Assembly: GCA_022539475.1 (NCBI GenBank)
Contig: VCMS01000213.1
Location: 1 to 64,000 of the forward strand
Length of the DNA stretch: 64,000 bases
Origin: Gracilaria domingensis
Taxonomy: Eukaryota; Rhodophyta; Florideophyceae; Gracilariales; Gracilariaceae
Reading direction: 5' to 3'
Part shown: positions 3,927 through 59,367 of the stretch, one piece after another
How positions within the stretch are numbered: position 1 is the stretch's first letter
Layout: each line of letters opens with the position of its first letter
Translations under genes and position numbers: made by a program
The notes under the pieces: generated by a model
The model's input: only the letters and a program-made list of their open reading frames with translations
Told to the model about the DNA's origin: nothing
Databases searched by the model: none

Positions 3927-4341
3927 TGCAAGTGTTCGATTGTTTTTGTGTGACGATAAAAAGGGAAGATGGGGCGGAGAACTGCTGGGGTAAAGAGTGT
4001 TACGTAAGGACAAACGGTTGGGAAGCGCAGAACGGGAACATGGTTCACTTTGTGAAAGTGAGCGAAATGTATGATATGTGATTGTACTGAATGAATGATA
4101 GGGCTTGTATGAGACGACAAGCCACAAAGTGTGATGATGTTTTATGAAAGGTAGGTGGAACAGTAGAAAGTGTGCAATGAATGAAACTGATTTCGAACCT
4201 GAGTTGTAAAGTAGTTGTAAAGTACGAGTTACGGGGAGCTTGAATACAGGACGAAAGGAGCCATTTTGGCGTCATAAATGAGGTGAACGGGTTTTATAGC
4301 TTCAATCGGATTGCCATAATTAAAAGGATGGAGTTGGATTG

Positions 4342-18841: not shown

Positions 18842-19304
18842 TGCAAGTGTTCGATTGTTTTTGTGTGACGATAGAAATGAAAGATGGGGCGGATGACTGC
18901 TGGGGTAAAGAGAGATACTTAAGTACAAACGGTTGGGAAGCGCAGAACAGGAACATGGTTCACTTTGTGAAAGTGAGCGAAATGTATGATATGTGATTGT
19001 ACTGAATGAATGATAGGGCTTGTATGAGACGACAAGCTACAAAGCGTGATGATGTTTTATGAAAAGTAGGTGGAAGAGTAGAAAGTGTACAATGAATGAA
19101 ACTGATTTCGAACCTGAGTTGTAAAGTACGAGTTACGGGAAGCTTGAATACAGGATGAAAGGAGCCATTTTGGCTTCATAAATGACGTGATCGGGTTCTA
19201 TGGCTTCACTCGGGTTGCCATAATCTTCTTTTTTATTGAGGTATAAAAGGAGGGTGTGTCTGGGAAGGACGGGTTTGGCGTTACTGAAGTTATCGGCGTT
19301 CAGT
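18842..19304. promoter_or_regulatory. Divergent promoter region between reductase-like gene and epimerase
   Basis: The 463-bp gap between two divergent start codons. It contains the epimerase TATA box (19,242-19,249) and, on the reductase side, AT-rich DNA with GAATGAATG repeats (about 19,000-19,015). In the left duplicate the epimerase half of this region is deleted. Confidence 0.6.
19242..19249 (+). promoter_or_regulatory. TATA box of epimerase gene
   Basis: TATAAAAG in the context GAGGTATAAAAGGAGG, 56 bp upstream of the ATG at 19,305, leaving a 5'UTR of roughly 25-35 nt if initiation is at the usual distance. It makes an upstream start near 19,236 impossible and so fixes the ATG at 19,305. 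Confidence 0.75.
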
Positions 19305-44105: not shown

Positions 44106-45117
44106 AACTATCGGGGAGGGGATGATAGGACCCTCAATGTACATCAATCGCAGAGACGGAAGAAAGCTGCATGAGAGCTAAACGCCGTAGCATGAGAGCT
44201 TTTTGGGAAACCTTCGGAAGGGGAAAGGCCGATGAGCTGCCCGACGACATTTTGTATCAAGACAGGATGTTCGTGGGCCTGAGCACAACCGTTGTCGTCG
44301 ATGTCGAAGTCTGCCGACTCGCGGTCCTCTGGCTCCTTCAGGAGCTAGAGTTCCGGACCAACGAGGCCCAGTGTCCCGGCGCCCGGCGGCGCTGTTCTAC
44401 TGGACAACGATGGGGAGCACAGTGGCGGCCCTCGGCAGGGCTGCATGTGCAGACGGACTAACGGCCCTCGCTGGGGCTGCGTCGCGCTGGTCGTCAGAGA
44501 CCGATACAAACAATGGTATAGTTGTAGAAGATAGTTTATTGATGATTGATGAGTAAAGACAGTGAAGTCGTTCAACGACAGCTAGCTTTCTACTTATGTA
44601 CTGCTTTGAGATAGCGTAAACCTGCTAAACCGCGTATCTCCCCGTTGAGCCAGATTAGTTACTGGAGCTCTGAAAAGACGCATATGCGCCTCTAATAAAT
44701 CAAATACAGTATATCCCCGATTTGTCACTCAGGTCCTGAAGCAATATGTGATATCAGGAACTGGGGCACACCTGATAACCTATAGCGGGGCCATTTAATT
44801 TTATTCACAAGATTACTTTCGATCGCGCTCAGGTCTGATAACACAGACAGTGGCGATCTTCGCCAAGAACGTCACGCATCATTCCTAGTTCCTCCCGGCC
44901 CGATCTTCCCAGCTCCGACACCATAATTGACATTGATTGTAACATTGCCAGAAAAATGCCCATGGTTACGAAGAAAAGAATGGACAGGCACTTCGGGCTC
45001 CCTGACGACAACATCACACTTCTCGTTCATTGCTGCAAACTGCCGAACTCTGCTTAGGTCAATCTCTTACGTCTTCTCCTTCTTTTCTAAGGAGACGACC
45101 AAATCTTCTTGTCCACG
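44106..45117. other. Intergenic DNA
   Basis: A 96-codon frame (44,171-44,461) begins MRAKRRSMRAFWETF but shows no domain and is doubtful. The rest contains short words such as TCAGG/CCTGA in both orientations around 44,730-44,840, perhaps a decayed inverted-repeat element. Nothing firm. Confidence 0.35.
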
Positions 45118-46064
45118 TTAGCCCTCACCAAAATCGACATTCTTACTTCTCGTAGCCAAACGCTTTGTGGCAGGATCTTCGAACTCACCCAAAATCCCTG
45201 CTTGCTGACGTTTACCGAGAGTCCCTCTCAAGTTAGTGTACGAAGCAAACGACCTGTGAACACGATGTCCAGAACTAATGGCCACGCTAGAATCCGGCAT
45301 TCCAGCGCGAAATAGTTGCGTAATAACCGTAGAAAGCAATCCATGTATGGTCATTGAATTACGCACGCCAACTCCAACGATCTTGTTTGCTTTGAAAGCA
45401 TCCGTTATGTAGCGAACAATCGTGCTCCCGCTAATGTTCTGGGGTTTGAAGAAGCTTTCCACCGTGGATGCTCTGTAGTTCACGGCACAGAAGAATTTTT
45501 CCTGAGGCTTGCGAATCTTACCCACTTTCTCGAGATACTCGTCGATATCTTTGTAAAAATTGATGCGACCCGAGAGCTGTGTGCGATTCCAGATGTATAT
45601 CTCTTTGGGTTTTGAATTCAGCCACTTAAGCCCTCCTGATTGCGTCTTTGATGCACCCTCCGAACGTCCGATACGACCGACGATGCGTATGACAACCTCG
45701 TCACCTTCTGTTTCTTTGGAAACATCCTCCAGACGTAACACAAGAAGCTCGTTCTTGCGAAAGGCGGTCATTAAGGCCACATCAAATATCAACCGTGTAA
45801 TATATCCACGAGGATGCGACTTGGCAAGCTGCAAAGACCCATATAAGTCGTAAATGTTCTTTTCTGTGAGGACATTATGACTCTTACGACATTGACCCTT
45901 TGCTTGTTGCTGCCTTATCTTGTTGTCTAAAGCCGTCGCTAACCCTTTCTGAGGATCCGAGAAAACCCTGCCACTAAAACGGTTAAGGTCATATCCCCAT
46001 CGATCTTTACATGCTCTCTGGAGACCTGCAACATAGGCTTTCAAAGTTGCTGGGCTCAGCTCTT
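45118..46064 (-). pseudogene. Crypton-type tyrosine recombinase (DUF3504-like), C-terminal part
   Basis: The minus-strand frame reads KELSPATLKAYVAGLQRACKDRWGYDLNRFSG..., then LIFDVALMTAFRKNELLVLRLEDV (box I Arg region of tyrosine recombinases), MTIHGLLSTVITQLFRAGMPDSSVAISSGHRVHRSFASYTNLRG (box II with the His, GH and a Tyr-containing segment). The second catalytic Arg of HxxR appears to be Leu, so catalysis is doubtful. The closest patterns are Crypton recombinases and the Crypton-derived domain of animal KIAA1958/ZMYM proteins. The frame is cut at 46,064 by a Ty3/Gypsy insertion; with the duplicated CTCTT counted once, it continues in frame into 57,787-58,418. Confidence 0.7.
46060..46064. 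repeat. Target-site duplication, left
   Basis: CTCTT, repeated at 57,787-57,791 on the other side of the Gypsy element. Confidence 0.95.
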
Positions 46065-46635
46065 TGTAGTATAGCCCGGCCAGATCAACGGGGGCTTACA
46101 AGACCAAGTGGTGACGTCACGGGCTCCCGGGCACGTGTGTCTACTGTACCACGTGGGACGCGCAAGCGCAGGCTTCGACAGAACTAATTAGTCTATTCTC
46201 GATAATTTAGAATTAATAATTACTAGGTAGTGTAGATATGTGGCCGGGGTGGTGCACCACAAATGCACCTCCCGGTGGCCCACGTGGCACTAGGCCCGTG
46301 AGAGCCGGAGGGGCGCTCGGGGGTACTAAACCCCCGAGACGCCAACCTCCCACACCAAATGGTAAAGTCAAGCACCAACTAGGCTGATTTGACACCAGTT
46401 CGGTTCTACAGTCACCAATTGGTAAGTCTAGTAGTCCTCTAATAGTTTTGCTGACCTCGAGGGTTATACGTGCCTGCCGCACACCAGTGCAGGCGTATTT
46501 ACCACTTAATCACCGTGCACTATAGGCAACGGTGGGTGCTGCCGACCTATTAGGTGTCACGCGTTTCACTCCTCCGCCGGGTCGAGCCCACGCGGGGCTC
46601 CCCACTAGCAGCTCGCACCGATCGGTTATACCACA
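46065..46635 (+). repeat. 5' LTR
   Basis: Begins TGTAGTATAG and ends GGTTATACCACA. It contains three perfect ACCANNTGGT sites (46,103, 46,354, 46,414) and a short hairpin around 46,315-46,340. A TGGTCTCCCGACC string at 46,641, five bases past the LTR, is a candidate primer-binding site; the matching tRNA was not identified. Confidence 0.95.
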
Positions 46636-46768
46636 TATTTTGGTCTCCCGACCTAGAATTTGTGGATTACCAAGTGGTTTTTGGAAAGGGGGGATTTGGA
46701 AGTCACGAGATACCTGAGTGGTTTGGTCGCCGTTGCCGAAGCAATTTGCTCCGACACCAGTTACCTAA

Positions 46769-49036
46769 ATGGAGAAACGGAGCGTCCGTCACCCGAAAAG
46801 GGCGCCGAGCGCTCCACCAAGTGGCCACCCCGTACGGGGTTCGGTGTCCCATCCGGTGTTGGATAACCCGGAGGACCTGATTCGGAAGGAGCGCCCACCG
46901 AGGGGGAAGAAGATAGACCGAGAGGCTGGGGGCCCCTCGACGCTTCCCCGGGCTGACCAAGTGGCCGAAGGAGCAGGCTCCGCAACGGAGGAGCCCGCTC
47001 CTGTAACAACCCCAGTGGTAGACCAAATGGAGGTGCCAGTCGGACCGCGACTGGACTTGGACGAGGTCACCCGAGTGGTAGTTGATCGAGCCTCCCAGGA
47101 GGTCCTCGACAAGGTACCTGTGGTGGTGTTACAGTACCTCGAGAACGAGGTACGAGGACACATCGACCGATTGGTTATGCTGGCTCTGCAGCAGCAGGGG
47201 GCTAAGCTTCAACCTGAGATGGTGGCCCAGGCCGCGCTCATGAAGCAATCTCCCCCGCCTGCAGTAGACGCCACCACACCACTTGGTATTCTCCACCCTA
47301 ACCTTCCTACACAACAGACTGGTGAAGGATTTATCGACCGCATGGGGAAAGGGGCCGAGCCTCCAGGGATGGAGGGCCCGAGGTACGTTTACCTCCCCCA
47401 ACCTACTGGTGTAGCTCCGTCAGGACCAAGTGGTGGAGACCCTGATGGAGATTCGTCGAGCTCAGGAGACGAGCGTCGACGTAAACCAAATGGTAAGAAG
47501 AAGAAAACCAAAAGGGGAAAGGGAAAGAGTCGCCGGTCGGACTCGGACTCTTCGTCCTCAGACACCGATTCGGATTCGTCAGGAGACGACGACCGTACAG
47601 GTTCACGACGCAAGAGGAAGGACTCTCGCAAGAAGAAAGGAAAGAATCCCCGTAAGGGTAAGACCAAAAGGTATAACGATTCGGACTCAACTTCCGACGA
47701 GGAGACTGACCTAGAGGTGCTTACGCCGCTCAATGATTTATTCACCAAAGCGGTTGACTATCGTACCTATAGGTTAGAGAATAGACAGGCTGAGTATACC
47801 AAAGAGGTAGCTCAGAAGATAACGAAGCATCATAGGAAGCTTCGTTTCCAACTGGGTGAAACTCGCTTTAGCGGGGATGACCCTATTGCGATCATTGATT
47901 TCCTTCAAAGGTTCAAGATCGCTTGTGATCAAAATGGGTTTTCAGAGGCAGCAGCCATGTGGCTGTTTCAATTCTACCTAACTGGTCAGGCTGGAGCGTT
48001 GCTCCACAGCCGCATCCAAGGAAACACCATGGCGGTGGACGAAGACCAAACGGAAATGTTGACAACATACCCACAGGTGGTTAACTTCCTACTGGAAACC
48101 TACGCGACCGATGAGGTAATCCAGGAGGCGTACGCAGAGGTGCTTGCGTACCGCCAGCGCGCGGGACAAACCGAATTGGAATTCGCTCGCTTCCGATGGG
48201 CATTAGCCTCCCGCTGTGGAAGCGTCTTTGCTACCAAAAGGTTGAAATCGATGTACGCCGACAACGTGGCGAAGTCTATCCGATCACAGGTTCGTAACTA
48301 CCTAGCTACCAACCGCACGGTCGACTACAACGCACTAGCCCGCCATGCACAGGGACTAGGCGACACCGTTCGGTCAGGGGCCAGGAAAGACTCCGCACCA
48401 CTTGGCAAACCATCGAAGGAGAAAGGAAAAACCAGGCGGTCAGTGTTTGACGTAGAGGAAGAGGAGACCACTACGGGGGAGGCGTCCACACAATACGCCT
48501 CCCAGGGTCACCCAGTCCACTTGGTGCATGCGCAACCGACAACTCGATCGCACGGTAATACCTCTTGGTCCAGCTCGCTATCCAGCGAGCCACCCTCAAG
48601 ACAAACCTCAGCTCCACCATCACAGGTATCCGTACCGGTCAGCCCGGTCCTAGCGGTACCATTCAAGCAATATGGTGAACGAGGACCACCCCCGCAGCAA
48701 TGGAGTGCAGTACCTACTGGAGGCCGTCCCCCATCGCGCGCGTCGTCGCTCGCGATGAAGGACCCCACAACCGGCAATCTCCTCTGTTGGTTCTGTTTGT
48801 CGCCTCACCACTTGGCCACAGCGTGCCCAAGTGTGGCTCCGCAGAACAGGAACGCTCTCCTGACTGCTCGCCAGCAGAACCACCAGGATATATTTGGGCC
48901 CACGGCGCGGAGCGCAGGCACGGGACACGCAAATGCGCGACCCAATGCAGCCACACCTCATCAGGTACACCTCGTTACGGAGCAGGACCAAACGGATCCC
49001 GCCCCGCAGGCGGAAAACGCCGAACAGTTGGGATAG
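46769..49036 (+). CDS. gag: Gypsy element gag
   Basis: 755 codons. After a Pro-rich N-terminus there is a very Ser/Asp/Lys-rich linker (about residues 224-310). The retrotransposon gag core lies at about residues 364-537 (ETRFSGDDPIAIIDFLQRF through the conserved YRQRAGQTELEFARFR helix). A zinc knuckle CWFCLSPHHLATAC (C-x2-C-x4-H-x4-C) is near residue 672. The 3' end overlaps the start of the pol frame in another phase, so pol would be reached by programmed frameshifting as in many family members. Part of the element at 46,065-57,786. Confidence 0.9.
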   Translation: MEKRSVRHPKRAPSAPPSGHPVRGSVSHPVLDNPEDLIRKERPPRGKKIDREAGGPSTLPRADQVAEGAGSATEEPAPVTTPVVDQMEVPVGPRLDLDEVTRVVVDRASQEVLDKVPVVVLQYLENEVRGHIDRLVMLALQQQGAKLQPEMVAQAALMKQSPPPAVDATTPLGILHPNLPTQQTGEGFIDRMGKGAEPPGMEGPRYVYLPQPTGVAPSGPSGGDPDGDSSSSGDERRRKPNGKKKKTKRGKGKSRRSDSDSSSSDTDSDSSGDDDRTGSRRKRKDSRKKKGKNPRKGKTKRYNDSDSTSDEETDLEVLTPLNDLFTKAVDYRTYRLENRQAEYTKEVAQKITKHHRKLRFQLGETRFSGDDPIAIIDFLQRFKIACDQNGFSEAAAMWLFQFYLTGQAGALLHSRIQGNTMAVDEDQTEMLTTYPQVVNFLLETYATDEVIQEAYAEVLAYRQRAGQTELEFARFRWALASRCGSVFATKRLKSMYADNVAKSIRSQVRNYLATNRTVDYNALARHAQGLGDTVRSGARKDSAPLGKPSKEKGKTRRSVFDVEEEETTTGEASTQYASQGHPVHLVHAQPTTRSHGNTSWSSSLSSEPPSRQTSAPPSQVSVPVSPVLAVPFKQYGERGPPPQQWSAVPTGGRPPSRASSLAMKDPTTGNLLCWFCLSPHHLATACPSVAPQNRNALLTARQQNHQDIFGPTARSAGTGHANARPNAATPHQVHLVTEQDQTDPAPQAENAEQLG

Positions 49037-52000
49037 AGGCCTTCCCCAACTGTCCGAAGACGGAAGGCCTTCCAGAACCAAGTGGTGCAAGTATGGACAA
49101 TTACCCATTGGTTACAGGGGAGGAGAGCCTTATGGACGGCACCGAACCGATATGCTTCCTCAAGCATAGTAACTATAAGGTAAACGTCACCCTCGGGTTT
49201 ACTTCTAACCACTTGGTACCATGCGTCACTGTCCTGGACACCGGGGCAGGACCTAATCTGGTGAATGCCAAACTATTAACTAACAGACAACTTAATAAGC
49301 TTCAGCCATGTACATTAACTAACCCACTGGTTGACGCCAACAACAGACCACTAACCGTCATGGGAGCGCTTACCATAATGGTATTGATTGACACCATGAG
49401 GGTCCGAGTTCGCTTCATAGTCGTTAACCAACTGGCAACAGACTGTATCCTTGGCACAACTTTTATAGACCATCATGTCAGGGCAATTTTTCCACGTTCT
49501 AAGACAGTTCTGTTCCATAATGGCCCCCGGATCGCCATTATTGGTAACCACAAGGGTGCCTCTCCGAAAGAGAACCGCACTCGACACCAACCGGTCCCGG
49601 AAAACACACTCTCCAACAAGGTGCGATTGGCAAAGGCGGTAACAATACCGCCTATGAACCACTTGGTAGTGAAGGTCACATGCCAACAACCTGGCCTGTT
49701 ATCCGTTCAGAACCATTCACGGTTGGCCGAACGACACATGACCTTAATGGCGAATGGTATAGTCGACAACATACCGACAAAACGGTTTCAGGTCTACCTG
49801 AGTAACTTCAGCAACCGCCCGGTCAAGTTGCCAAAGCACACCGTAATTGGTCTTGCCTTACCGGCTCCCCGTACGATCTTTACAATTATACCACAATGGT
49901 CCCACGAGGTCGTGGATGCTAAGGAAGGGGGGGGCAGTGTCAATTCGTTGAATTCGTCGCGAACAGACCATGTGGTGCAGCGACTAGCTGAGCGAGAAGA
50001 CCAGAAACTGGAGCTCGACCCAGTGACCAATTGGAAGACGGAGGTGAATATAGGACTTGAAGGGGAAGAGCTCAGAGCTCGGATCCTTGGACTCCTGGAG
50101 CCATTCAGTACCATGTGGTCGGGTAAGCTGGGAGCCATTAAGGCCACCCAGCACAGGATTGACCTCAAACCGGACTCCCGTCCCATCCACCAACAGCCAT
50201 ACCGCGCGGGACATAAGGCCCGTGAGGTAGAGCTGGAGGAGGTAGAGCGGATGCTCCGCGAGGGGGTTATAGAACCGGCAAACTCGGAATGGGCTAGCCC
50301 TGTAGTGCTAGTCCAAAAACGAGGAGAGACCCGTATGAGGTTCTGTATTGACTACAGAAAACTTAATGCCGTAACGGTAAGGGACTCGTACCCCATCCCG
50401 AGGATGGATGAATGCATCGACTCCCTAGGAGATGCGAACATCTTTACCACACTGGACGCCAACTGCGGGTATTGGCAGATCGAAATACCAGAGGGTGACC
50501 GTGATAAGACTGCGTTTACATGCCACGCAGGCCTGTATCGCTTCTTACGCATGCCGTTTGGTTTAAGAAACGCCCCCGCTACCTTCCAAAGGGCGTTAGA
50601 CATTATACTGTCTAAAGTGAAGTGGACAACCGCATTGGTATACATAGATGACGTAGTCATCTACTCGAGGTCCATAGAGGAGCACTTCTCGCACGTCCAA
50701 GTGGTACTGCAGTTGCTACAAGAGGCAGGCGTGACCCTCAAACTACGAAAGTGTATGTTCTTCAACCAAGAGGTAGAGTACCTAGGGCATACAATAAGCC
50801 CCGGGAAACTCGAAGTGACCAAACGGAATATCCGAGCGGTACAGGAAGCGAAGCTCCCTACGTCGCAGACGGACATACGATCCTTTATAGGTCTCTGCAA
50901 CGTCTACCGGCGGTTCATCAAGGGTTTTGCAAAGATAGCCGCACCCCTGAACCGGAGGTTGCAGAAGGGGCAGCCCACACACTTTGACCACCTGGAAGAG
51001 GACGAGGTAGAGGCGTTCTATACATTGAAAGCAGCGCTTCTCTCCCCACCGGTACTGGCATTGCCCAAAACGGGACTCCCGTATACACTGGACACGGATG
51101 CGTCGGACGCCCAAATAGGTTGCTGCCTAATGCAGGAACAGGAGGACGGCAAGCTCGCACCAATTGGGTATTGGAGTAGAGCTCTTAACCAAGCGGAGCA
51201 GAACTACACCGTAACGGAGAAGGAATGCCTAGCGGTTGTTTGGAGCATGCTCATGCTACGTCCTTACCTATATGGTGTGCGCTTCACGCTCCGAACGGAT
51301 CACGACTCCTTGAGGTGGATATTAGGCTTGGCGGACGCATCGGGTCGTCTGGCCCGATGGCGTCTGAGACTCTCGGAGTTTGAGTACGATGTGCAGTACC
51401 GCCCCGGGGTCAAGCACCGAGTGGCGGATGCATTGTCTCGGTTGAATACCGAAGGATTGGACACTGACCCAGTGGACGACGACATCCCATGCTTTACTAT
51501 AGAACCAGCTAACCACGAGGTCAATGAAGTTCTGAAGCGATACTGGCATGATGACAGTACGTACCAAGTGGTAGTGGAGACCCTCCTTCCTGTGGAGGAA
51601 GGGGAACACGCTCCAATCACCCGTGAGGAATTCTTACGCGAACAATCGACCGATAGGTTGTGCAAAACGCTCGCTGACGTACTTCGAAGGAAGGATTCTC
51701 ATTTCGACGTCGACCACAATGGGTACCTCATCAGACGCTCACCTGTAGACGGAGCTCTCCAGAAGGTCGTACCTGAGTCATTAAGACAAAGGGTGTTATA
51801 TCTGTCACACAATCCACGGCTTTCGGGACACCCTGGAGCCACGCGGTTGTACTATACCCTTCGGAGGCAATTCTACTGGCCGCATATGGCTAACGATGTA
51901 TATACCTATGTGGCGCAATGCAATTCGTGCATTAAGACCCGAGGTGGTGTGGCGAAGCACAGGAAGTACCTAAAGCTATTCCCGGCGGCGGGGCCCCTGG

Positions 52001-52410
52001 AATTCGTAGCAATCGACATACTGGGGCCCCTGCCCAAGACCTCAGAGGGTTACCGCTTTGTAGTAGTCATAACCGACAGGTTCACAAAGCTCACCAGAGC
52101 CATACCTCTGAAGAACCAAACGGCAACGACACTAGCGACAGCCTTCCTGGAGAATTGGGTCTACCCGTACGGTGCTCCCATGTACCTACTGACCGATAAC
52201 GGTTCGAACCTAGCTTCTAAGTTCTTCGAGGCGGTTTGTACAATGCTAGGGGTCAAGCACTACTTTCCTACGGCCTATCATCCGCAAACAAACGGCCAAG
52301 TGGAACGCTTCAATAAGACCCTAGTGGCACGCCTACGGCACTATGTCGAAGAGCACCAAACCACATGGTCGGAGTATGTCCAACCATTGACATATGCGTA
52401 CAACCTCTAG
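48700..52410 (+). CDS. pol: Gypsy element pol region (protease, RT, RNase H, integrase)
   Basis: Parts in order are an aspartic protease with VLDTGAG (about residue 177 of this frame), a reverse transcriptase with CIDYRKLN, MPFGLRNAPATFQ and YIDD (about residue 648), and RNase H with DTDASD and DALSRL. An integrase with the zinc-binding region and catalytic core segments (DILGPLP, DNGSN, YHPQTNGQVER) completes the set. The order RT-RH-IN is that of Ty3/Gypsy. Part of the element at 46,065-57,786; considered as a fossil, no repair is proposed. Confidence 0.9.
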   Translation: MECSTYWRPSPIARVVARDEGPHNRQSPLLVLFVASPLGHSVPKCGSAEQERSPDCSPAEPPGYIWAHGAERRHGTRKCATQCSHTSSGTPRYGAGPNGSRPAGGKRRTVGIEAFPNCPKTEGLPEPSGASMDNYPLVTGEESLMDGTEPICFLKHSNYKVNVTLGFTSNHLVPCVTVLDTGAGPNLVNAKLLTNRQLNKLQPCTLTNPLVDANNRPLTVMGALTIMVLIDTMRVRVRFIVVNQLATDCILGTTFIDHHVRAIFPRSKTVLFHNGPRIAIIGNHKGASPKENRTRHQPVPENTLSNKVRLAKAVTIPPMNHLVVKVTCQQPGLLSVQNHSRLAERHMTLMANGIVDNIPTKRFQVYLSNFSNRPVKLPKHTVIGLALPAPRTIFTIIPQWSHEVVDAKEGGGSVNSLNSSRTDHVVQRLAEREDQKLELDPVTNWKTEVNIGLEGEELRARILGLLEPFSTMWSGKLGAIKATQHRIDLKPDSRPIHQQPYRAGHKAREVELEEVERMLREGVIEPANSEWASPVVLVQKRGETRMRFCIDYRKLNAVTVRDSYPIPRMDECIDSLGDANIFTTLDANCGYWQIEIPEGDRDKTAFTCHAGLYRFLRMPFGLRNAPATFQRALDIILSKVKWTTALVYIDDVVIYSRSIEEHFSHVQVVLQLLQEAGVTLKLRKCMFFNQEVEYLGHTISPGKLEVTKRNIRAVQEAKLPTSQTDIRSFIGLCNVYRRFIKGFAKIAAPLNRRLQKGQPTHFDHLEEDEVEAFYTLKAALLSPPVLALPKTGLPYTLDTDASDAQIGCCLMQEQEDGKLAPIGYWSRALNQAEQNYTVTEKECLAVVWSMLMLRPYLYGVRFTLRTDHDSLRWILGLADASGRLARWRLRLSEFEYDVQYRPGVKHRVADALSRLNTEGLDTDPVDDDIPCFTIEPANHEVNEVLKRYWHDDSTYQVVVETLLPVEEGEHAPITREEFLREQSTDRLCKTLADVLRRKDSHFDVDHNGYLIRRSPVDGALQKVVPESLRQRVLYLSHNPRLSGHPGATRLYYTLRRQFYWPHMANDVYTYVAQCNSCIKTRGGVAKHRKYLKLFPAAGPLEFVAIDILGPLPKTSEGYRFVVVITDRFTKLTRAIPLKNQTATTLATAFLENWVYPYGAPMYLLTDNGSNLASKFFEAVCTMLGVKHYFPTAYHPQTNGQVERFNKTLVARLRHYVEEHQTTWSEYVQPLTYAYNL

Positions 52411-52566
52411 GTCCACAGGGTCACTCAAACAACCCCATTCGACCTGGTACTTTCGCGAACACCACATGGTATTATCGTCCAGCCCGGACCTGACCGCTCG
52501 GAAGCGGCCGGGACACTCACACCGGCGAAGGTCAAGAGAAACATACTCCAGAAGTTACGCGCCGCT

Positions 52567-53337
52567 TTGGCTGCTGCCAAAGTTAAGATGACAGCAGCCC
52601 AAGAACGGTATAAAGCGGACTATGACCGAACGGTGAGCAAAGTGACCAAAGTGGTAGCAGGAGACATGGTCTTCCTTGACGTGCCACCAAAAGGTAAGCG
52701 ACCAACCCCAGCGGAGATGGAAGAGGACATCCGCCTTGAGGAGGATATCAATTCTAAACTACTACCCAAGTCCACGGGACCATACAAGGTGATTCGCTCC
52801 GACGAGCATACCGCTACGGTCATAATGGAAGGTTTGGAGAACACGGTCTCCATCGACAGGATTGTCAAGGCCGCACAACCGACGACAGCGAATGCACAAC
52901 CAATAGGTGAGCCAACGCAGCAGGAAGCGGAGAGGGAGCAAACGTCTCCCATACCCCCTCCTATGATGAGTCAGCCGAGCGGTCAACCTTCCACCAGAGC
53001 CGTAACGGCTGACCCCACGACCCAAGCGGCACAGGGGATCGAGCCTCGGCAAGACCAACGGGTCACACCACCCACGGGGAGCCACGCACCCCATGACCAA
53101 ATGGAAGAGTCACACCCTCAAGTAGACACTCAGGAGTGCGCTATTGACACCATTGTAGGTCACGAACACACCACAAAGGGTATGCGCTACCGGGTAAGAT
53201 GGTATGGATGGTCGCCCGAGCACGACTCTATGGAACCACCTGGTCATATCCCTAACAACTTCATCATCCGATACTGGCGCAAACAAGGGCGAACGCCCCC
53301 ACCAACTGGTATTGCTTCGCGTGGTACGCGTCGCTAA
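52567..53337 (+). CDS. Gypsy element chromodomain-bearing C-terminal region
   Basis: The frame carries a typical integrase C-terminal segment (GDMVFLDVPP...GPYKVI), a low-complexity Pro/Gln linker and a terminal chromodomain (IVGHEHTTKGMRYRVRWYGWSPEHDSMEP...W). This marks the element as a chromovirus, the Ty3/Gypsy branch whose integrase is steered by chromatin. In chromoviruses this region is the C-terminal end of the integrase. Confidence 0.85.
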   Translation: MAAAKVKMTAAQERYKADYDRTVSKVTKVVAGDMVFLDVPPKGKRPTPAEMEEDIRLEEDINSKLLPKSTGPYKVIRSDEHTATVIMEGLENTVSIDRIVKAAQPTTANAQPIGEPTQQEAEREQTSPIPPPMMSQPSGQPSTRAVTADPTTQAAQGIEPRQDQRVTPPTGSHAPHDQMEESHPQVDTQECAIDTIVGHEHTTKGMRYRVRWYGWSPEHDSMEPPGHIPNNFIIRYWRKQGRTPPPTGIASRGTRR

Positions 53338-53444
53338 GGAAGGGGGGGGGTTATCGAAGCCGTTGAACGCCACGCTACACGAAAAGCTAACTAACTAACC
53401 TAACAGGAAAACAAAAGAAGATCAGAGATCACAATGCAAGACAC

Positions 53445-53450
53445 TTTATT
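53445..53450 (-). promoter_or_regulatory. Poly(A) signal of antisense ORF
   Basis: AATAAA on the minus strand, 38 nt downstream of the antisense stop codon, in the short interval between the ends of the two convergent coding regions. Confidence 0.65.
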
Positions 53451-53488
53451 AGTCGAGAAGAATCCACGAGAGGGAACCACGAGGTGAC

Positions 53489-56023
53489 TTAGGAGGCCTT
53501 GGAGGACCCACGGCCACGTCCGCGTCCACGACTGGTTCCACGACCGCGACCACGTCCACGGGAGGTCCCGCGAGATGAAGCGGAACCTCCACGACCAGAG
53601 GACACCGACATAGGTCCGGCGGAGCTTGCGCCCCCGCCGCTAGCCGCGCTCGGTGGCGCACCACCACTTGGTAAGGGAGCAGAAGTACCAGCAGGTCCCG
53701 CAGGGGTACCGCGGCTGACTACCGGCATGGTATTCGCAGGACCAGTGGGTGGATGGAAGGAAGGCGGTAAGCTAGACGGAGGGATGCCACCAGAGGTCGG
53801 AGGAGCAAGACCACTAGACGGCCCTGCACCGGGGGTCAGACCAGTAGGCGGCCTAGGAGCACCGGACGTCGGCGGAAGCGGAGCCGAACGGAAACCAGTT
53901 GAGAAACCACTTGGTGCTCCTGTCCCAGTACTTGCTGGAGGAAGAGGAACGTTGTGAGGACCAAGCGGAGTATGGAAAGGTGCCGAAGGATCACCACCAG
54001 GAGGTCCACCAGGGAGTTGATACGTACCAAGGCCACCAAAGCCTACCATTGGGGTCGCAGGTTGCTGTGACGCAGGAGCGTACGGGTTGAAACTTTCCAC
54101 AGGGGGTCGATGTAACGGCGCGTGGCCTTCCACAAGGTTGCTCAACTGACCAACATAGGCTGTCACCTCACGGTAGAGATTGCGCTGGAAGTAGTCGCGG
54201 AACTGTCGCAGCTCAGAAGTGCGCCGCTCGTGGTGAGCAACCACGGGGAGCAAGTTGGTAAGAGTATCCACAGCGGTGAGGATGTCATTTGGACCAGGAC
54301 GGTTGAAGTGCACCATCGAGGCGTGGTTGAGACGAGCCAGAGCGCTCCGTATCGCGCCACTATCACCACCAGGGGGCACCGGATTCACCGGAAGCGACTG
54401 GAAACCAACCCGAAGAGGCCCCTGGGCAGCCCGTCCGGGAGGGTGAGCAGCCGCCTGAGGGTTAGCCGGACCACTTGGAACAGGCGCAGCCACGCTGGTC
54501 GGAGGAGTAGCCTGTACAGGTGCCGACGGAGGCAATGCGGGGGACTCATAGTTCTCGGCAGCCACCATCACGGTATCGTCATTACCAAATGGGTCTTCGC
54601 CAGCCATGTGCTGCTGTTGGAGAGGCACGATGCTATGAACCTCCGGGTCGTAGACATCCCAACCCCGTTCAGGCCCCCAATTGTGGTTACTTACCGCAGT
54701 GAGGTAGCCATCCAACTGCTGCGCAGTATATTTGGTGCCCTCCACGATGTTGGAGAGCCCCATGGCACGAATGTCGCCGACCACATCGTTGGGAATATTG
54801 AAGATACGACCAACTGGTTGAGTTCCGCTGATCCCGACAGACTTGTCAGGGCAGCGCGTGTCCCAAGTCACACCTTCCACGGAAGCCTGAAGGGCGAGGA
54901 TAGCCACCATGACGGCCCACTCGCTGCGCGCGACCGACCAAACGGCATATGCGTTGTTCCTCTCGAGGGAGATGCTACTACCAAAGTACGCAAGGACCGA
55001 CGGGGTCGGCACTTCCAGCCACTGACATACTTCATAGTGGTCCCACCAAGAGGGTCGATTGACATACCATGTCCGGCGGTTGTGGTCGCTCTGCGACCAA
55101 TATTCAACGTTGTGGAACAGGAACATGGTCCGCGTACGGTTGTTACGGTGACGAACACGGCTCTCAGCCATCGCATCGGTCGCCCACCTCTCACGGTCAG
55201 TCCAATAATTGGTATCTAAAGGGCGCTCAAACGCGACGTACTCCAGATCGACCTCGATGTGCGTAGCAGGTTCGTCCAAGCGGTGAAGGATATCTACCAA
55301 ACGGCGGAAGTAGTGGACCTCCCCATCGCAGCGGATGAAGGGGAGATCCGACGGTACGGCCACGGGGATGTAGTATAGAAACTTCGTGTGTCGCTGCCGC
55401 GCATGGAAACACTGTTGTCGACCGAACCGGCTCTGCTTCTCGCCCTTGCGTGGTGGAGGAGGTGCCATAGGCACCGCCTCCAACCGGCGACAATCCCAAC
55501 GGGCAATTGCGGTATACTGCGTGAGACCCATGTGGCGGAACCGCAAGGGACAGAGTGAGGAACTGATGTGGAAAGGCCAGTTCCCCAGAGCGACCAATTC
55601 GGCGGAGATATCGGCAAAGCGTGCACCATAGTGGGCATGCGGCTGCCCGTGCGTCCTATTAAGGTCATGAGGATTCAGCTGTTGAGCCTCCACCGTACCG
55701 GCCACCGCAAGAGGGTTAACATTGCTCGGACCCGCGGCGGCTGCGTAGAGATCATACCCACCGCGACCGTAAGGGTCTTGACGAGAACGCGTACTCGACC
55801 GCGTGTTAGGCTTGAAGATGCCACCTCCGCGGCCGCGCGCTACCCCAGGGGTCTTGCCAGACATTCTCGACCGGGAGGCAACAGTTTCGCGAACCGAACG
55901 GTTGACCTCCGCCGAGGGGGAGACTTCAGAAGCCGAATATCCCTTTATAGGGTCGAAGTGCGGCTCCTCCAATACCAAGTGGTTGGCCTTCACGGGAGCC
56001 TCGGCGCCCGATGGAAAGGACAC
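53489..56023 (-). CDS. Antisense 844-aa accessory ORF of the Gypsy element
   Basis: A long frame on the strand opposite to gag-pol, between pol and the 3' LTR. It starts MSFPSGAEAPVKANHLVLEEP. A basic, Arg/Gly-rich N-terminal part (RSRQDPYGRGGYD) leads to a ~350-residue globular-looking middle with many aromatic residues (GNWPFHISSSLCPLRF..., NRRTWYVNRPSWWDHYEVCQWLEV...). A Pro/Gly/Ser-rich linker follows, and an RG-repeat tail (SRGRGRGRGTSRGRGRG) typical of nucleic-acid-binding proteins. An AATAAA lies on the same strand at 53,450-53,445, 38 nt past the stop, so this is a proper transcription unit. No known family recognised. Antisense accessory ORFs occur in some plant Ty3/Gypsy groups; relation to them is untested. 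Confidence 0.75.
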   Translation of the reverse strand: MSFPSGAEAPVKANHLVLEEPHFDPIKGYSASEVSPSAEVNRSVRETVASRSRMSGKTPGVARGRGGGIFKPNTRSSTRSRQDPYGRGGYDLYAAAAGPSNVNPLAVAGTVEAQQLNPHDLNRTHGQPHAHYGARFADISAELVALGNWPFHISSSLCPLRFRHMGLTQYTAIARWDCRRLEAVPMAPPPPRKGEKQSRFGRQQCFHARQRHTKFLYYIPVAVPSDLPFIRCDGEVHYFRRLVDILHRLDEPATHIEVDLEYVAFERPLDTNYWTDRERWATDAMAESRVRHRNNRTRTMFLFHNVEYWSQSDHNRRTWYVNRPSWWDHYEVCQWLEVPTPSVLAYFGSSISLERNNAYAVWSVARSEWAVMVAILALQASVEGVTWDTRCPDKSVGISGTQPVGRIFNIPNDVVGDIRAMGLSNIVEGTKYTAQQLDGYLTAVSNHNWGPERGWDVYDPEVHSIVPLQQQHMAGEDPFGNDDTVMVAAENYESPALPPSAPVQATPPTSVAAPVPSGPANPQAAAHPPGRAAQGPLRVGFQSLPVNPVPPGGDSGAIRSALARLNHASMVHFNRPGPNDILTAVDTLTNLLPVVAHHERRTSELRQFRDYFQRNLYREVTAYVGQLSNLVEGHAPLHRPPVESFNPYAPASQQPATPMVGFGGLGTYQLPGGPPGGDPSAPFHTPLGPHNVPLPPASTGTGAPSGFSTGFRSAPLPPTSGAPRPPTGLTPGAGPSSGLAPPTSGGIPPSSLPPSFHPPTGPANTMPVVSRGTPAGPAGTSAPLPSGGAPPSAASGGGASSAGPMSVSSGRGGSASSRGTSRGRGRGRGTSRGRGRGRGSSKAS

Positions 56024-57214
56024 AGGTGTACCGGTCTGGGACGGCAGACAGGGCTACGAAGAGTCAACCACGTGGTAATTCGATTGAAACGGCGCCGTCT
56101 CACCCCCGGGGTCCACCACAACGGGAAGGGCGCGCGCGATGCCCTCTTCGGCACCGTCTTCACGGCGTTCGAACGTCATCGACCACCCCGTTGGGGAAGC
56201 GGGTTGATCACCCATGAGGTATAAAAGGCGCGAGTTGGAGCGAGAGCGTGCCACGGAGGATACCAACCGAGAGGGGGAACACCACCAATTGGATGACTAG
56301 ATGAAACCTGAGGGGTCACAGAGAACGGGCACGCCGCTCGAGCGAGCTGACACACCGTGAAAATGACCAGGGTTGTGCGCCGGCTGGACGGGTTCCGTGA
56401 ACCAGGGAGGTTACAACCACCCCAGAGGGAACCTAAGGGACGGAAGGAGACCGCGAGGAACCAGGTGGAGGGGCGCTGAACGCCACGCAGTCGGGTAAAC
56501 CCCTCGGCTGGACCTGAATCAAGTCTGAACACCCCGATGAGGCAGACCACTAGGTAGAAGCGGCGTCAGCACCGGTACGGTCACGAAGTCTGAAGAGCCA
56601 CGGGCAGGAGTCTCCTCACCCTCGACGCGGCCGCCCAAGGCAACGACACCCCAGTGGCGCCCTCACTCAAGCGGAGAGACAGTACGTGTCGGAACCAACG
56701 AGGTATCACCTCAGTACGGCACAAGACCAAGTGGCCAACAGAGAATAGGAGCGACACCACGAGGGGGCGGTGTGCCGATCGGTTGACAACTGCGAACCCC
56801 ACCGAAGGGAGGCTCGAAACCAACTGGTAAGCCGGGACTAACCCGCCCAGGGGGAGGACGGACAGGGGAAGATGGAGTGACGGACTCCTCCGGGAGGGAC
56901 CGAAGAGGCGAAGACAACCACGTGGTACCAGGCGCGCGACAAGATCAACCTGAATGGTCGCGGTTCGCGGTTTCGCGTTCCAATACCACGAGGGACGTAA
57001 GGTACGATCGCACCTACCACAGGGGGGTACGGCGGCGTGGGTAATGGCGCTGCAGTGCATGTGGCGAACCGCGCCGTGCACCGCGCCATCTTCGCGTCAT
57101 CGCGAGACGCGCCGTGCGCCAGGCGATGCGCGCCGACGACCGTTTGGTGAAAAGGCGGCAAACGCCGTGGGACCTTCGCGGCCACGGGGCGTGCCTGTCG
57201 GTAGGAGGGGGGTC
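56024..57214. promoter_or_regulatory. Presumed antisense promoter region and polypurine tract
   Basis: 1.2 kb between the antisense start and the 3' LTR, without a convincing ORF. It has perfect ACCANNTGGT sites at 56,067, 56,819 and 56,917 and several one-mismatch variants. A purine run AGGAGGGGGG at 57,203-57,212, ending two bases before the LTR, is the likely plus-strand primer tract. A TATAAAAGG at about 56,220 points rightward, away from the antisense ORF, so the antisense start signal is unclear. Confidence 0.5.
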
Positions 57215-57786
57215 TGTAGTATAGCTCGGCCAGATCAACGGGGGCTCTACAAGACCAAGTGGTGACGTCACGGGCTCCCGGGCACGTGTGTCTACTGTAC
57301 CACGTGGGACGCGCAAGCGCAAGCTTCGACAGGACTAATTAGTCTATTCTCGATAATTCAGAATTAATAATTACTAGGTAGTGTAGATATGTGGCCGGGG
57401 TGGTGCACCACAAATGCACCTCCCGGTGGCCCACGTGGCACTAGGCCCGTGAGAGCCGGAGGGGCGCTCGGGGGTACTAAACCCCCGAGACGCCAACCTC
57501 CCACACCAAATGGTAAAGTCAAGCACCAACTAGGCTGATTTGACACCAGTTCGGTTCTACAGTCACCAATTGGTAAGTCTAGTAGTCCTCTAATAGTTTT
57601 GCTGACCTCGAGGGTTATACGTGCCTGCCGCACACCAGTGCAGGCGTATTTACCACTTGGTCACCGTGCACTATAGGCAACGGTGGGTGCTGCCGACCTA
57701 TTAGGTGTCACGCGTTTCACTCCTCCGCCGGGTCGAGCCCACGCGTGGCTCCCCACTAGCAGCTCGCACCGATCGGTTATACCACA
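57215..57786 (+). repeat. 3' LTR
   Basis: 572 bp, about 98.6% identical to the 5' LTR. It carries four perfect ACCANNTGGT sites (57,254, 57,505, 57,565, 57,652), one more than the 5' LTR, where the fourth has changed. Confidence 0.95.
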
Positions 57787-58418
57787 CTCTTTATCACCTC
57801 TCTTGGTCCTCCGCATGGCGATAAATTCTATGATGACTGTATTGAGCCGCCGCAATTGCTTCTTGGTCCACAAGCTGGTATCCTGGGGTAGACTTAGCCC
57901 ATCTTCGGTGCGAAATAGATAATTGAAACAAGCCCCACTGCTTCTTCGAGCAAACTCTTACGCTTCCAGGGCGGAGTACGTTTTTCTTGAAGTACTTCCT
58001 TCTTCGAAAGGATCCATAAGTTGAATGCGTCAATGACAAACTCGGTGAACTCATTAAAAGCAGTGGCTGTTGCGCGGATGGTGTTGTCCGGCACATGTTT
58101 TCCGAGCAACTTCGATACAGTCTCGGACAAGGTAGGCTCCACTGAAATGTTGCCGTTTAAATGTTCGCCAGAGTTCAAGGAAGTACTGGGCTCAGGTCTT
58201 GCAGATGTGGGTAGAAGAGATGGCGGAAGAGGTGGTGTCGGTGGAATGTGAAAAGTCGAGCTCACTTCAGATGTGTGATTGGAAGTTGCGTAGCCAGGAT
58301 TTGAGTCCCCTTCAAAGCACTCTTTTATTGCAGCCACTGGAGGCAGTTGCTGTTGAAACGTCTGAGCAGCATTTGGCTGTTCATCGAATGTCTGTGTCCA
58401 GGATGGGTTCACGATCAT
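57787..58418 (-). pseudogene. Crypton-type recombinase gene, N-terminal part
   Basis: Starts at the ATG at 58,418 (MIVNPSWTQTFDEQ). A Pro/Ser-rich leader leads to HVPDNTIRATATAFNEFTEFV, like the start of Crypton/DUF3504 proteins (VP.NT....A...F..W). A 59-nt intron at 57,961-57,903 (GTAAGAG donor, AG acceptor) would keep the frame and join it to DGLSLP...SLWTKKQLRRLNTVIIEFIAMRRTKRGDKE, which at the insertion site continues in frame to LSPATLKAYVAGLQR at 46,064 downward. The intron is inferred from frame only, since its branch site is weak. The gene is disrupted by the 11.7-kb Gypsy element. Confidence 0.55.
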
Positions 58419-59367
58419 TGTAGTTTTGGCTGCGCATGAAGGCGAGGGGATCTGAACGGTCCATGGAGAAGCTCAAGAATGTGCTGCCTTTAACATCCAC
58501 TTGCGCTACGCAACTGTCTTGCAGACACAGTGCGCCGTTGGGCTGCCGTTAAACGCCATCCTGACTACGCAACTGTCGAGTAAAGATAGTGTGTCCTTCA
58601 GCCACCAGCGAACGCAATCTGAGTGACAAGCAAGTTATCACTCGGTGGCTCGCCACGAAATGCGTACCTCGGCACAATATATCGGGCCTCGCTGCGCTCG
58701 GACCCGATATATTGGCCTCGGTCCGCATTTCTCTGGCTTGCCCCGGTTGATAACTTATACGTATATCTCTCGAGAGAGAGATATACAGTATCCCTATCAA
58801 TACAGTTGAGGCTTCACTGCCACAAAACACAAATCTCACTCTTCTGACCGCCAGGGTCCCAAACAACCCGACATCGAGATTCATATCTTAAACATTCTTC
58901 ATCAACACACTCGACAGTCGACGGTGATTCATGGAGCTGAAGAGCCCAGACAGTGATCGGAGCACCTTTGGAGCATTGGTACAGTATCATGATTGGTTTT
59001 TGGAAACAAGTTATGGTTTGCTCTCAGGCAAACTGTGAATAACACCCTCGATTCGAGAACACGAGTGCACTTCAATGGTACTGAACTAGCTGAAGTCGTC
59101 TCAGAACAGAAATCGCTCACCAATGCTTGCATCTAGATACGCACAAAACACGGCCGCGGACACATCTTGGAGATGAAAGACCCTCTGCTGTCGCTTGAAC
59201 TTTGATGCCGCTTGGGCCTCCGGCAGGCTTCGGCTCGTTTCACAATATGGTACAAATTGAGATGCAGATAAACTCTATTGCTACAGACATGTCTTTGACA
59301 CACTGCAGCGAATTCTGCTCCAGTCAACGTCCTCCCATTTCACATCGCTTGTTTTGCCGTATCAATT
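58419..59367. other. Intergenic DNA with repeated 13-mer
   Basis: CTACGCAACTGTC occurs twice (about 58,506 and 58,565). A long hairpin is listed separately. No gene recognised; small frames have no domain. Confidence 0.4.
58632..58756. repeat. Long imperfect hairpin, ~55-bp arms
   Basis: Arms 58,632-58,686 and 58,703-58,756 pair over most of their length. The outer nine bases (AAGTTATCA) and inner eleven (AATATATCGGG) are perfect, and about three quarters of the middle pairs. The loop is 16 nt. Followed at ~58,760-58,785 by a second short palindrome built on CTCGAG with GTATAT/ATATAC ends. It may be a small foldback element or a small-RNA precursor. Confidence 0.65.

What the first reader, a model, noticed from the sequence alone, without database searches (positions are those of the whole stretch)
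46065..57786. 28 copies of the palindrome ACCANNTGGT along one Gypsy element
Perfect matches start at 46103, 46354, 46414, 46669, 47278, 47425, 47485, 49077, 49208, 49658, 49967, 50110, 51563, 52360, 52461, 53235, 53301, 53663, 53906, 54809, 55974, 56067, 56819, 56917, 57254, 57505, 57565 and 57652. With eight fixed bases, about 0.2 would be expected in 11.7 kb at equal base frequencies. There are also many one-mismatch versions (ACCAAGTGGC, ACCAAATGGA, ACCACTTGGC). The two central bases vary freely (AG/CT, AA, AT, AC, TG, CA, CG, CC). Sites occur in LTRs, gag, pol and the antisense ORF. Inside pol they fall in all three codon phases and encode different residues (NHLV, TMWS, PSGA), so selection is on DNA, not protein. 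The core is an E-box (CANNTG) with fixed flanks. This looks like a dispersed array of dimeric binding sites, either for an element-encoded protein (anti-silencing, packaging or insulator role, compare VANC targets in VANDAL transposons or Su(Hw) sites in Drosophila gypsy) or for a host factor.
Basis: partly seen in the sequence, partly recalled or inferred. Interest (0 to 1): 0.88.

Follow-up and report, generated by a model that had tools for sequence, protein, structure and literature searches.

The report
Retrotransposon studded with paired DNA half-sites
An intact mobile element in what is probably a red-alga genome carries about a hundred copies of a short mirrored DNA word along its whole length, kept by selection even inside its genes, which suggests that a protein recognises the element by this pattern.

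Summary
In detail: all 28 ACCANNTGGT sites are where stated, against 0.2 expected. They are the strongest class of a larger array: half-sites ACC and GGT recur at spacings of 4 (61 pairs), 5 (38) and 6 bp (17), about 8 each by chance, over LTR, leader, gag, pol, antisense ORF and tail; 10.4 per kb against 0.40 in window 1-45100. The reversed arrangement is not enriched. Codon-preserving shuffles never reach the observed pairs in four ORF segments. Between subfamilies, fourfold-degenerate bases inside pairs are kept 23/24 and 25/25, others about 60% (stratified P 2e-3, 1e-4): selection on nucleic acid. An invariant CC/GG core, flexible spacing and no G-U tolerance argue against an E-box and against RNA hairpins, for a dimeric duplex-DNA binder. 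The antisense-ORF protein (dN/dS 0.12-0.20 in 13 of 15 pairs, no known relatives) is the leading candidate, unproven: 11 of 12 copies at 76-82% pol identity, two or more with sites, show no antisense-ORF match nearby. Function (self-recognition, perhaps VANC-like anti-silencing) is inferred.

The parts
46060..46064 (.). target-site duplication CTCTT, left copy
46065..46635 (+). 5' LTR, TG...CA; 8 ACC-N4..6-GGT pairs, 3 perfect ACCANNTGGT sites (46103, 46354, 46414)
46636..46768 (+). leader, perfect site 46669
46769..49036 (+). gag ORF (755 aa; no Pfam family over its cut-off); 26 pairs; perfect sites 47278, 47425, 47485
49037..52410 (+). pol (ORF open from 48700): weak protease match below cut-off, RT, RNase H, integrase; perfect sites 49077, 49208, 49658, 49967, 50110, 51563, 52360
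52411..53337 (+). 3' part of pol, in a second ORF (52567-53337) with chromodomain; perfect sites 52461, 53235, 53301
53489..56023 (-). antisense ORF (aORF), 844 aa from GTG, open frame 854 aa (mostly 935-946 aa in the open full-length copies); dN/dS 0.12-0.20 in 13 of 15 pairs of open copies; perfect sites 53663, 53906, 54809, 55974; candidate binder
56024..57214 (.). tail between aORF and 3' LTR; perfect sites 56067, 56819, 56917; G-rich purine tract just before 57215
57215..57786 (+). 3' LTR; 9 pairs; perfect sites 57254, 57505, 57565, 57652 (57652 is lost in the 5' LTR)
57787..57791 (.). target-site duplication CTCTT, right copy
46065..57214 (.). dyad array: 61 ACC-N4-GGT + 38 ACC-N5-GGT + 17 ACC-N6-GGT (24 of them ACCANNTGGT); start positions of the N4 and N5 classes are listed in the full report

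Best explanation
The whole element is a dense array of binding sites for a dimeric sequence-specific protein that reads double-stranded DNA: half-site ACC (often ACCA) facing GGT across 4 bp (best), 5 or 6 bp. The array lets that protein recognise and cover the element's own DNA at about 10 pairs per kb, LTRs included, and act on it for the element's benefit, most likely by opening its chromatin or antagonising silencing (VANC-like). The most likely binder is element-encoded, with the conserved antisense-ORF protein as lead candidate. Shown: array, specificity, absence from the other families sampled (short stretches), selection at synonymous sites, purifying selection on the aORF. Inferred: dimer on dsDNA (about 0.8), element-encoded binder (about 0.5), aORF as the binder (about 0.35), anti-silencing as the role (about 0.3).
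For: Spacing and arrangement specificity: ACC..GGT at gaps 4/5/6/7 = 61/38/17/9, GGT..ACC flat, no other inverted triplet to a like degree. Density 10.4/kb inside, 0.40/kb in window 1-45100. In fetched loci (overlapping ones counted as they are, ten loci left out) element parts have 10.80/kb over 217 kb, the rest 0.95/kb over 43 kb: 41 pairs, 26.8 expected from other gaps, three of these loci having been fetched because they hold a site. Codon-preserving shuffles, pairs at gaps 4-6: gag 26 (max of 1000: 14), pol 32 (16), chromodomain ORF 11 (9), aORF 21 (13). Selection: fourfold sites in pairs kept 23/24 WIN->L064 and 25/25 L033->L064, all others 298/498 and 294/497, stratified P 1.9e-3 and 1.3e-4; against unpaired ACC/GGT 44/69 and 45/72, P 0.028 and 4.7e-3. 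Half-sites L067->WIN 129/132 against 190/223. Pairs rarely closer than 20 bp: 3 against 12.7 at random, P 5e-4, as for a footprint. Genome-wide ACCAAGTGGT 838+850 against 83+56 for its reversal, while the 33 perfect sites on contigs C1-C3 amount to at most 0.017 per kb against 0.021 for the reversed control over the genome, so host DNA shows no sign of using the motif. aORF dN/dS 0.12-0.20 in 13 of 15 pairs.
Against: No binding data. No DNA-binding domain recognised in the aORF; AlphaFold models from the single sequence are unusable (pLDDT 50 and 30). Variable spacing (4-6) is unusual for a rigid dimer. Of the 12 copies with pol identity 76-82% in the capped list, only one (C15) has a listed aORF match within 10 kb (both score a limited number of candidates and the list is cut), although at least C28 and C38 carry motif sites: array and aORF may be separable. 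Spacing is not regular beyond the short-range gap (CV 0.882 against 0.884 random). Retention of whole perfect sites is weak per pair of copies (P 0.003 to 0.58). Half-sites are not better kept in 3 of 32 comparisons (e.g. WINa->L033a 34/42 against 82/99), and P<0.05 in only 13 of 32. In the chromodomain ORF the N4 class alone (6, shuffle maximum 8) and the perfect sites alone (2, maximum 2) do not exceed all shuffles.
Confidence: 0.45

Rival explanations
1. The binder is a host DNA-binding protein that the element exploits (activator, chromatin opener, integration or replication factor).
For: The array is maintained by selection, so binding helps the element; some related copies with sites show no aORF match nearby.
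Against: No sign of enrichment in host DNA: two sites in the other 52 kb of the window; 33 perfect sites on contigs C1-C3, no denser than the reversed control; stretches of three other Gypsy families have 1, 1 and 0 pairs in 801 bp where the window's homologous stretch has 4. A host factor with no host sites is odd, though one with few host targets would fit.
Confidence: 0.28
2. RNA-level signal: ACC/GGU mini-hairpins with 4-6 nt loops in the genomic RNA, recognised by Gag for packaging.
For: Gap preference 4>5>6 resembles hairpin loops; 3-bp stems have a mean of -1.7 kcal/mol for gap 4, and 17 of 60 gap-4 pairs have a local pairing probability over 0.5 (no shuffled control was run); some strand asymmetry of mismatches (16 at the last base against 2 at the first).
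Against: G-U logic absent at gap 4: GCC..GGT (wobble) is 2.1-fold over background, no more than the non-pairing ACC..GGA, ACC..GGG and TCC..GGT (2.5, 3.1, 2.6-fold), and ATC..GGT is not enriched (2 against 2.2). Stems do not extend: next outer pair complementary in 6 of 61, 25% expected. GGU..ACC hairpins, of like stability, are not enriched.
Confidence: 0.15
3. Target of host silencing (a recognition code used against the element).
For: A host that must recognise a family could use any dense motif.
Against: Sites are kept at synonymous positions, while an element under attack should lose them.
Confidence: 0.04
4. By-product of base composition, codon use or protein sequence.
For: The element is T-poor and C/G-rich.
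Against: Dinucleotide shuffles and Markov models up to order 4 (2.0 perfect sites expected) and codon-preserving shuffles all fall short; the arrangement control GGT..ACC is flat.
Confidence: 0.01

Closest known systems
VANC/VANDAL anti-silencing system of Arabidopsis (PMC5735166, passages read)
   Same: A transposon family carries many copies of a short motif; in VANDAL an element-encoded protein binds it (ChIP-seq, gel shift) and the whole element loses DNA methylation.
   Different: VANDALs are DNA transposons (recalled); VANC motifs (YAGTATTAY; AGTTGTCC and AGTTGTAC) are not palindromes and lie in tandem repeats of non-coding parts, with much weaker binding to coding probes. Here: LTR retrotransposon, inverted half-sites with 4-6 bp spacing, dispersed through coding sequence; no methylation data.
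Papillomavirus E2 and its sites ACCN6GGT (PMC8353396, passages read)
   Same: Same half-sites ACC and GGT in the same orientation, read by a self-encoded dimer.
   Different: Spacing 6 there, 4 preferred here; in the passages most Alphapapillomavirus genomes have four sites, all in the control region. No relation of E2 to the aORF showed in the Pfam and PDB-sequence scans. A resemblance only.
Retand Gypsy elements of plants with antisense ORFs between pol and 3' LTR (PMC11963269, abstract read)
   Same: Gypsy element with an antisense ORF between pol and 3' LTR; its TRP28 protein domain is suggested to bind DNA.
   Different: No Pfam match in this aORF; this element has a chromodomain, Retand is non-chromovirus; about half of those elements have tandem-repeat arrays there, and the abstract mentions no dispersed motif.
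Drosophila gypsy insulator with Su(Hw) sites (recalled, not looked up)
   Same: Cluster of sites for one protein inside a Gypsy element.
   Different: A dozen or so sites in one short untranslated region and a host zinc-finger protein (recalled); here the sites are everywhere.

Membership tests
Ty3/Gypsy LTR retrotransposon with chromodomain | LTRs, target duplication, gag, pol order RT-RNase H-integrase, chromodomain after integrase | tested here: met
VANC-type self-recognition system | dense family-specific motif under selection within the element | tested here: met
VANC-type self-recognition system | motifs arranged in tandem repeats of non-coding regions | tested here: not met
   pairs are spread over LTR, gag, pol and aORF; at seed 15 and length 60 the only direct repeat in 45000-59000 is the LTR; the tandem-repeat finder was not run
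VANC-type self-recognition system | VANC protein homolog encoded | tested here: not met
   aORF has no Pfam match at E<=1 and no homolog at E<=1e-3 among 7988 candidates scored; no direct comparison with a VANC sequence was made
VANC-type self-recognition system | protein binding and loss of methylation | not testable with these tools
   needs protein and methylome
bHLH E-box | invariant CANNTG core | tested here: not met
   inner A/T tolerant (ACCANNAGGT 10 against 0.87), CC/GG nearly invariant, 5- and 6-bp classes need no CANNTG
Papillomavirus E2 site | ACC-N6-GGT as the preferred spacing | tested here: not met
   N6 is the weakest of the three enriched classes: 17 against 61 for N4 and 38 for N5
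Retand antisense ORF | antisense ORF between pol and 3' LTR | tested here: met
   53489-56023 minus strand
Retand antisense ORF | TRP28 domain | tested here: inconclusive
   no Pfam match at E<=1; whether TRP28 has a Pfam model was not checked
RNA packaging stem-loops (recalled) | base-pairing with wobble tolerance and extending stems | tested here: not met

The most novel reading that the evidence does not exclude
A retroelement-wide recognition code: a self-encoded dimeric protein with no known relatives marks the element's own DNA through about one ACC..GGT pair per 100 bp (about two per 100 bp if all excess CC-N4..6-GG pairs, these included, are counted), written into synonymous positions of all its genes and into its LTRs, so that every part of any copy, fragments included, is recognised.
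Probability: 0.4. Interest if true: 0.92.

Novelty: new variant of a known kind. Interest (0 to 1): 0.8.

Why it matters
Short motif arrays that mark a transposon as self are known to me only from VANDAL DNA transposons, where they sit in non-coding repeats. Here an LTR retrotransposon keeps about a hundred inverted half-site pairs, most of them inside its genes, with measurable constraint on synonymous sites. If a single protein reads them, it would be a second, independent design of element self-recognition, would give a function to a long antisense ORF (a recurrent and unexplained feature of Gypsy elements), and would supply a DNA-binding protein with a readable code and no known relatives. 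A gel shift would test it directly.

Tried and rejected
Chance, composition, codon use and protein constraint. E-box/bHLH. RNA hairpins. Nucleosome-like regular spacing: CV no different from random. The first retention test, on whole perfect sites, had little power; it was replaced by half-site and fourfold tests, and those by a position-stratified version after one search showed that divergence from the C51 copy varies strongly along the aORF. Motif footprint in the proteins of 120 metagenomic relatives (46-64% identity): 0.29 [YHND][HQ][LMV]V matches per protein against 0.17 in shuffles, 4 in the window's pol; no clear sign of the array in them, but this sees one reading phase only, and DNA of these relatives was not at hand. 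Residues at half-sites against the majority of the 12 closest relatives: 18 of 31 agree, elsewhere 494 of 723, P 0.24, no general effect. Structure prediction of two aORF pieces gave unusable models, so no fold search was made. Viral-contig scan with pol: nothing. Papers holding Gracilaria domingensis, genome sequence and PacBio together: none.
Full report
1. Observation. Dinucleotide shuffles of the element give 0.22 (maximum 3 of 500), and Markov models of order 1-4 give 0.25, 0.68, 1.08 and 2.02. The element is complete: LTRs 46065-46635 and 57215-57786, target duplication CTCTT at 46060-46064 and 57787-57791, gag, pol with RT, RNase H, integrase and chromodomain, and a long antisense ORF between pol and 3' LTR.

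2. What the motif really is. Sites with one mismatch never lose CC and only once GG, but tolerate other bases at the inner A/T and at the last T. An unbiased scan of gapped triplets put ACC-N4-GGT first and showed ACC-N5-GGT as a separate class. Counting by gap: gaps 3-8 give 6, 61, 38, 17, 9, 3; the reversed arrangement GGT..ACC stays at 3-13; CC..GG at gaps 4, 5, 6 gives 210, 152, 116 against about 82. No other inverted triplet is enriched over gaps 4-6 to a like degree (next: 24 against 15). The rest of the window shows none of this (ACC..GGT 8, 8, 5 at gaps 4, 5, 6 in 52 kb). Every segment of the element takes part, except that the short stretch 53338-53488 has one pair only. The conserved RT/RNase H part (50001-52000) has the fewest pairs of the four 2-kb bins that lie wholly inside the element (26, 11, 26, 14), as expected if coding constraint competes.

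3. Positions (first base of ACC). Other N4 (37): 46267, 46617, 47166, 47401, 47663, 47709, 47765, 48069, 48233, 48312, 48365, 48431, 48560, 49103, 49189, 49322, 49586, 49814, 50487, 50765, 51512, 51649, 52072, 52403, 52625, 52686, 52899, 53054, 53476, 53687, 53741, 53996, 54165, 54639, 55893, 56546, 57139. N5 (38): 46394, 46454, 46545, 46712, 47009, 47069, 47592, 47744, 47798, 47976, 48026, 48107, 49372, 49393, 49547, 49890, 50629, 51159, 51266, 52163, 52645, 52810, 53721, 54045, 54293, 54564, 54584, 54996, 55045, 55766, 55842, 56102, 56210, 56306, 56401, 56571, 56694, 56948. The N6 class (17) was counted, not listed. The N4, N5 and N6 counts leave out the 3' LTR. By chance about 8 of each class are expected, so single members are not certain.

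4. Selection. Codon-preserving shuffles (1000 each) never reach the observed number of pairs in gag (26; mean 6.4, max 14), pol (32; 7.6, 16), chromodomain ORF (11; 3.6, 9) or aORF (21; 5.7, 13); in the chromodomain ORF the N4 class alone (6, max 8) and perfect sites alone (2, max 2) are reached. Copies of the family were compared. In one search, half-sites in pairs are kept better than the same trinucleotides outside pairs in 29 of 32 comparisons, with P<0.05 in 13 (best: L033a->L064 35/38 against 59/101, P 6e-5; L067->WIN 129/132 against 190/223, P 5e-5; the reverse WIN->L067 136/150 against 183/216, P 0.06); the three exceptions are WINa->L033a, L064->L066 and L030a->L033a. Because divergence varies along the aORF, I repeated the test in 200-bp strata. 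Fourfold-degenerate sites, pairs against all others: WIN->L064 23/24 against 298/498 (P 1.9e-3), L033->L064 25/25 against 294/497 (P 1.3e-4), L064->L033 37/40 against 286/484 (P 4e-5), L064->WIN 35/40 against 287/474 (P 1e-3), WIN->L066 22/24 against 276/498 (P 1.8e-3), WIN->L065 20/24 against 278/497 (P 0.019), gag-pol WIN->L067 61/64 against 801/914 (P 0.07). Against unpaired ACC/GGT only, P is 0.028, 4.7e-3, 0.018, 0.036, 0.051, 0.13 and 0.25 in the same order. These comparisons share sequences and are not independent. WIN->L022, ->L030 and ->L033 were run unstratified only, with fourfold P of 0.09, 0.06 and 0.04 against other sites. In gag-pol all 11 perfect sites of the C51 copy are perfect in the window, two with a changed centre; of the 14 window sites covered there three are lost in that copy.

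5. Where else. In the fetched loci, element parts have 10.80 pairs per kb over 217 kb (loci overlap; ten loci left out), the other parts 0.95 over 43 kb, where other gaps predict 0.62. Stretches of three Gypsy families at 40-44% identity have 1, 1 and 0 pairs in 801 bp each; the window's homologous stretch has 4. A 600-bp stretch of one member of the sister clade at 65% RT identity has 1; in its 264-bp part that aligns with the integrase it has 0 where the window has 3. Genome-wide, ACCANNTGGT counts 4164 against 1620 for the reversed pattern, ACCNNNNGGT 21944 against 18689, ACCAAGTGGT 838+850 against 83+56, ACCATGTGGT 254+214 against 58+50, ACCAACTGGT 217+230 against 93+96. The 33 perfect sites on contigs C1-C3 come to at most 0.017 per kb, against 0.021 for the reversed control over the genome, so most of the excess probably lies in this family. 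The place lists stop at 100 places. In their listed parts, copies with pol identity 79% (C28 near 83 kb: 4 sites; C38 near 187 kb: 2) and 82% (C15 near 306 kb: 3, plus 2 of the AG class) carry sites, some at the same distance from RT as in the window and some at new ones; four members of the 64-65% clade (C31, C37, C41 near 30 kb, C48) show no TG- or AC-class site within 10 kb. So the array probably arose after the split from the 64-65% clade, or was lost there.

6. DNA or RNA. A hairpin model predicts G-U tolerance and stem extension. Neither is seen: at gap 4, GCC..GGT is 2.1-fold over background while the non-pairing ACC..GGA, ACC..GGG and TCC..GGT are 2.5-, 3.1- and 2.6-fold; ATC..GGT 2 against 2.2; the next outer base pair is complementary in 6 of 61 (25% expected). 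GGT..ACC is not enriched. Pairs closer than 20 bp are rare (3 against 12.7, P 5e-4), as a protein footprint would demand. Against this, the graded gap preference and 3-bp stem energies of about -1.7 kcal/mol leave the RNA reading possible. A mismatch asymmetry in perfect-like sites (16 at the last base, 2 at the first) is much weaker when the inner bases are ignored (ACC-N4-GGV 62 against 23; BCC-N4-GGT 29 against 12.6; sums).

7. Who binds. The aORF protein is under purifying selection (dN/dS 0.12-0.20 in 13 of 15 pairs of open copies; the other two 0.40 and 0.49) and is open in many copies. It has no homolog at E<=1e-3 among the 7988 candidates scored from 5.8 billion proteins, no Pfam match at E<=1, no significant PDB sequence match (best E 0.46), and unusable single-sequence models. 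Its C-terminus is Gly-Arg rich. In its favour as binder: it is the only long gene of the element without a routine function, and none of the 20 copies of the 64-65% clade listed, which seem to lack the array, has a listed aORF match within 10 kb. Against: of the 12 copies listed at 76-82% pol identity only C15 has one, although C28 and C38 carry sites. All three lists are capped (104, 103 and 150 candidates scored; one search leaves some matches unlisted). The aORF may be too diverged there (matches elsewhere go down to 39%), lost and used in trans, or not the binder.

8. Host. The only organism named among the 120 listed pol relatives is Chondrus crispus (P0117, 58% identity); the assembly size of 77.9 Mb agrees with the 78 Mb given for Gracilaria domingensis in PMC10388701 (passages read). 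A red alga, probably Gracilaria, is my inference.

9. Known systems. VANC/VANDAL (PMC5735166, passages) is the nearest working model. E2 (PMC8353396, passages) shares the half-sites but uses ACCN6GGT. Retand (PMC11963269, abstract) shares the antisense ORF. Searches for a dispersed motif array or an anti-silencing motif in an LTR retrotransposon and for red-algal Gypsy elements, of which I saw listings and starts of abstracts only, showed nothing like it; the library is incomplete.

Noticed in passing
window 52360-52369: The integrase stretch EHQxDWDEFV of most of the eight relatives shown reads EHQTTWSEYV here: both Asp are replaced in the codons that hold the motif ACCACATGGT. Suggestive of the DNA site overriding a conserved residue, but the general test was not significant.
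   Followed up: partly
L064 and L067 (contig C51 copy): The C51 copy looks like a mosaic: gag-pol about 93% like the window, aORF about 82% with synonymous divergence above 1 in its N-terminal part but 0.19 at its C-terminal end, next to pol. Recombination between subfamilies is likely.
   Followed up: partly
L049, L059: One LTR with the 3' end of an element on one side and the 5' start of another on the other: tandem elements sharing an LTR.
   Followed up: no
window 57652 and 5' LTR equivalent 46502: A site is intact in the 3' LTR and has GG changed to AA in the 5' LTR of the same element: probably a loss after insertion.
   Followed up: no
window 3024-4127 and 17939-18928: Two near-identical host ORFs in a duplicated stretch; the two extra perfect sites at 176 and 15095 lie at matching places of the duplication.
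   Followed up: no
window 45118-46044: Tyrosine-recombinase ORF (Phage_integrase, E 7e-9) directly upstream of the element, on the minus strand.
   Followed up: no
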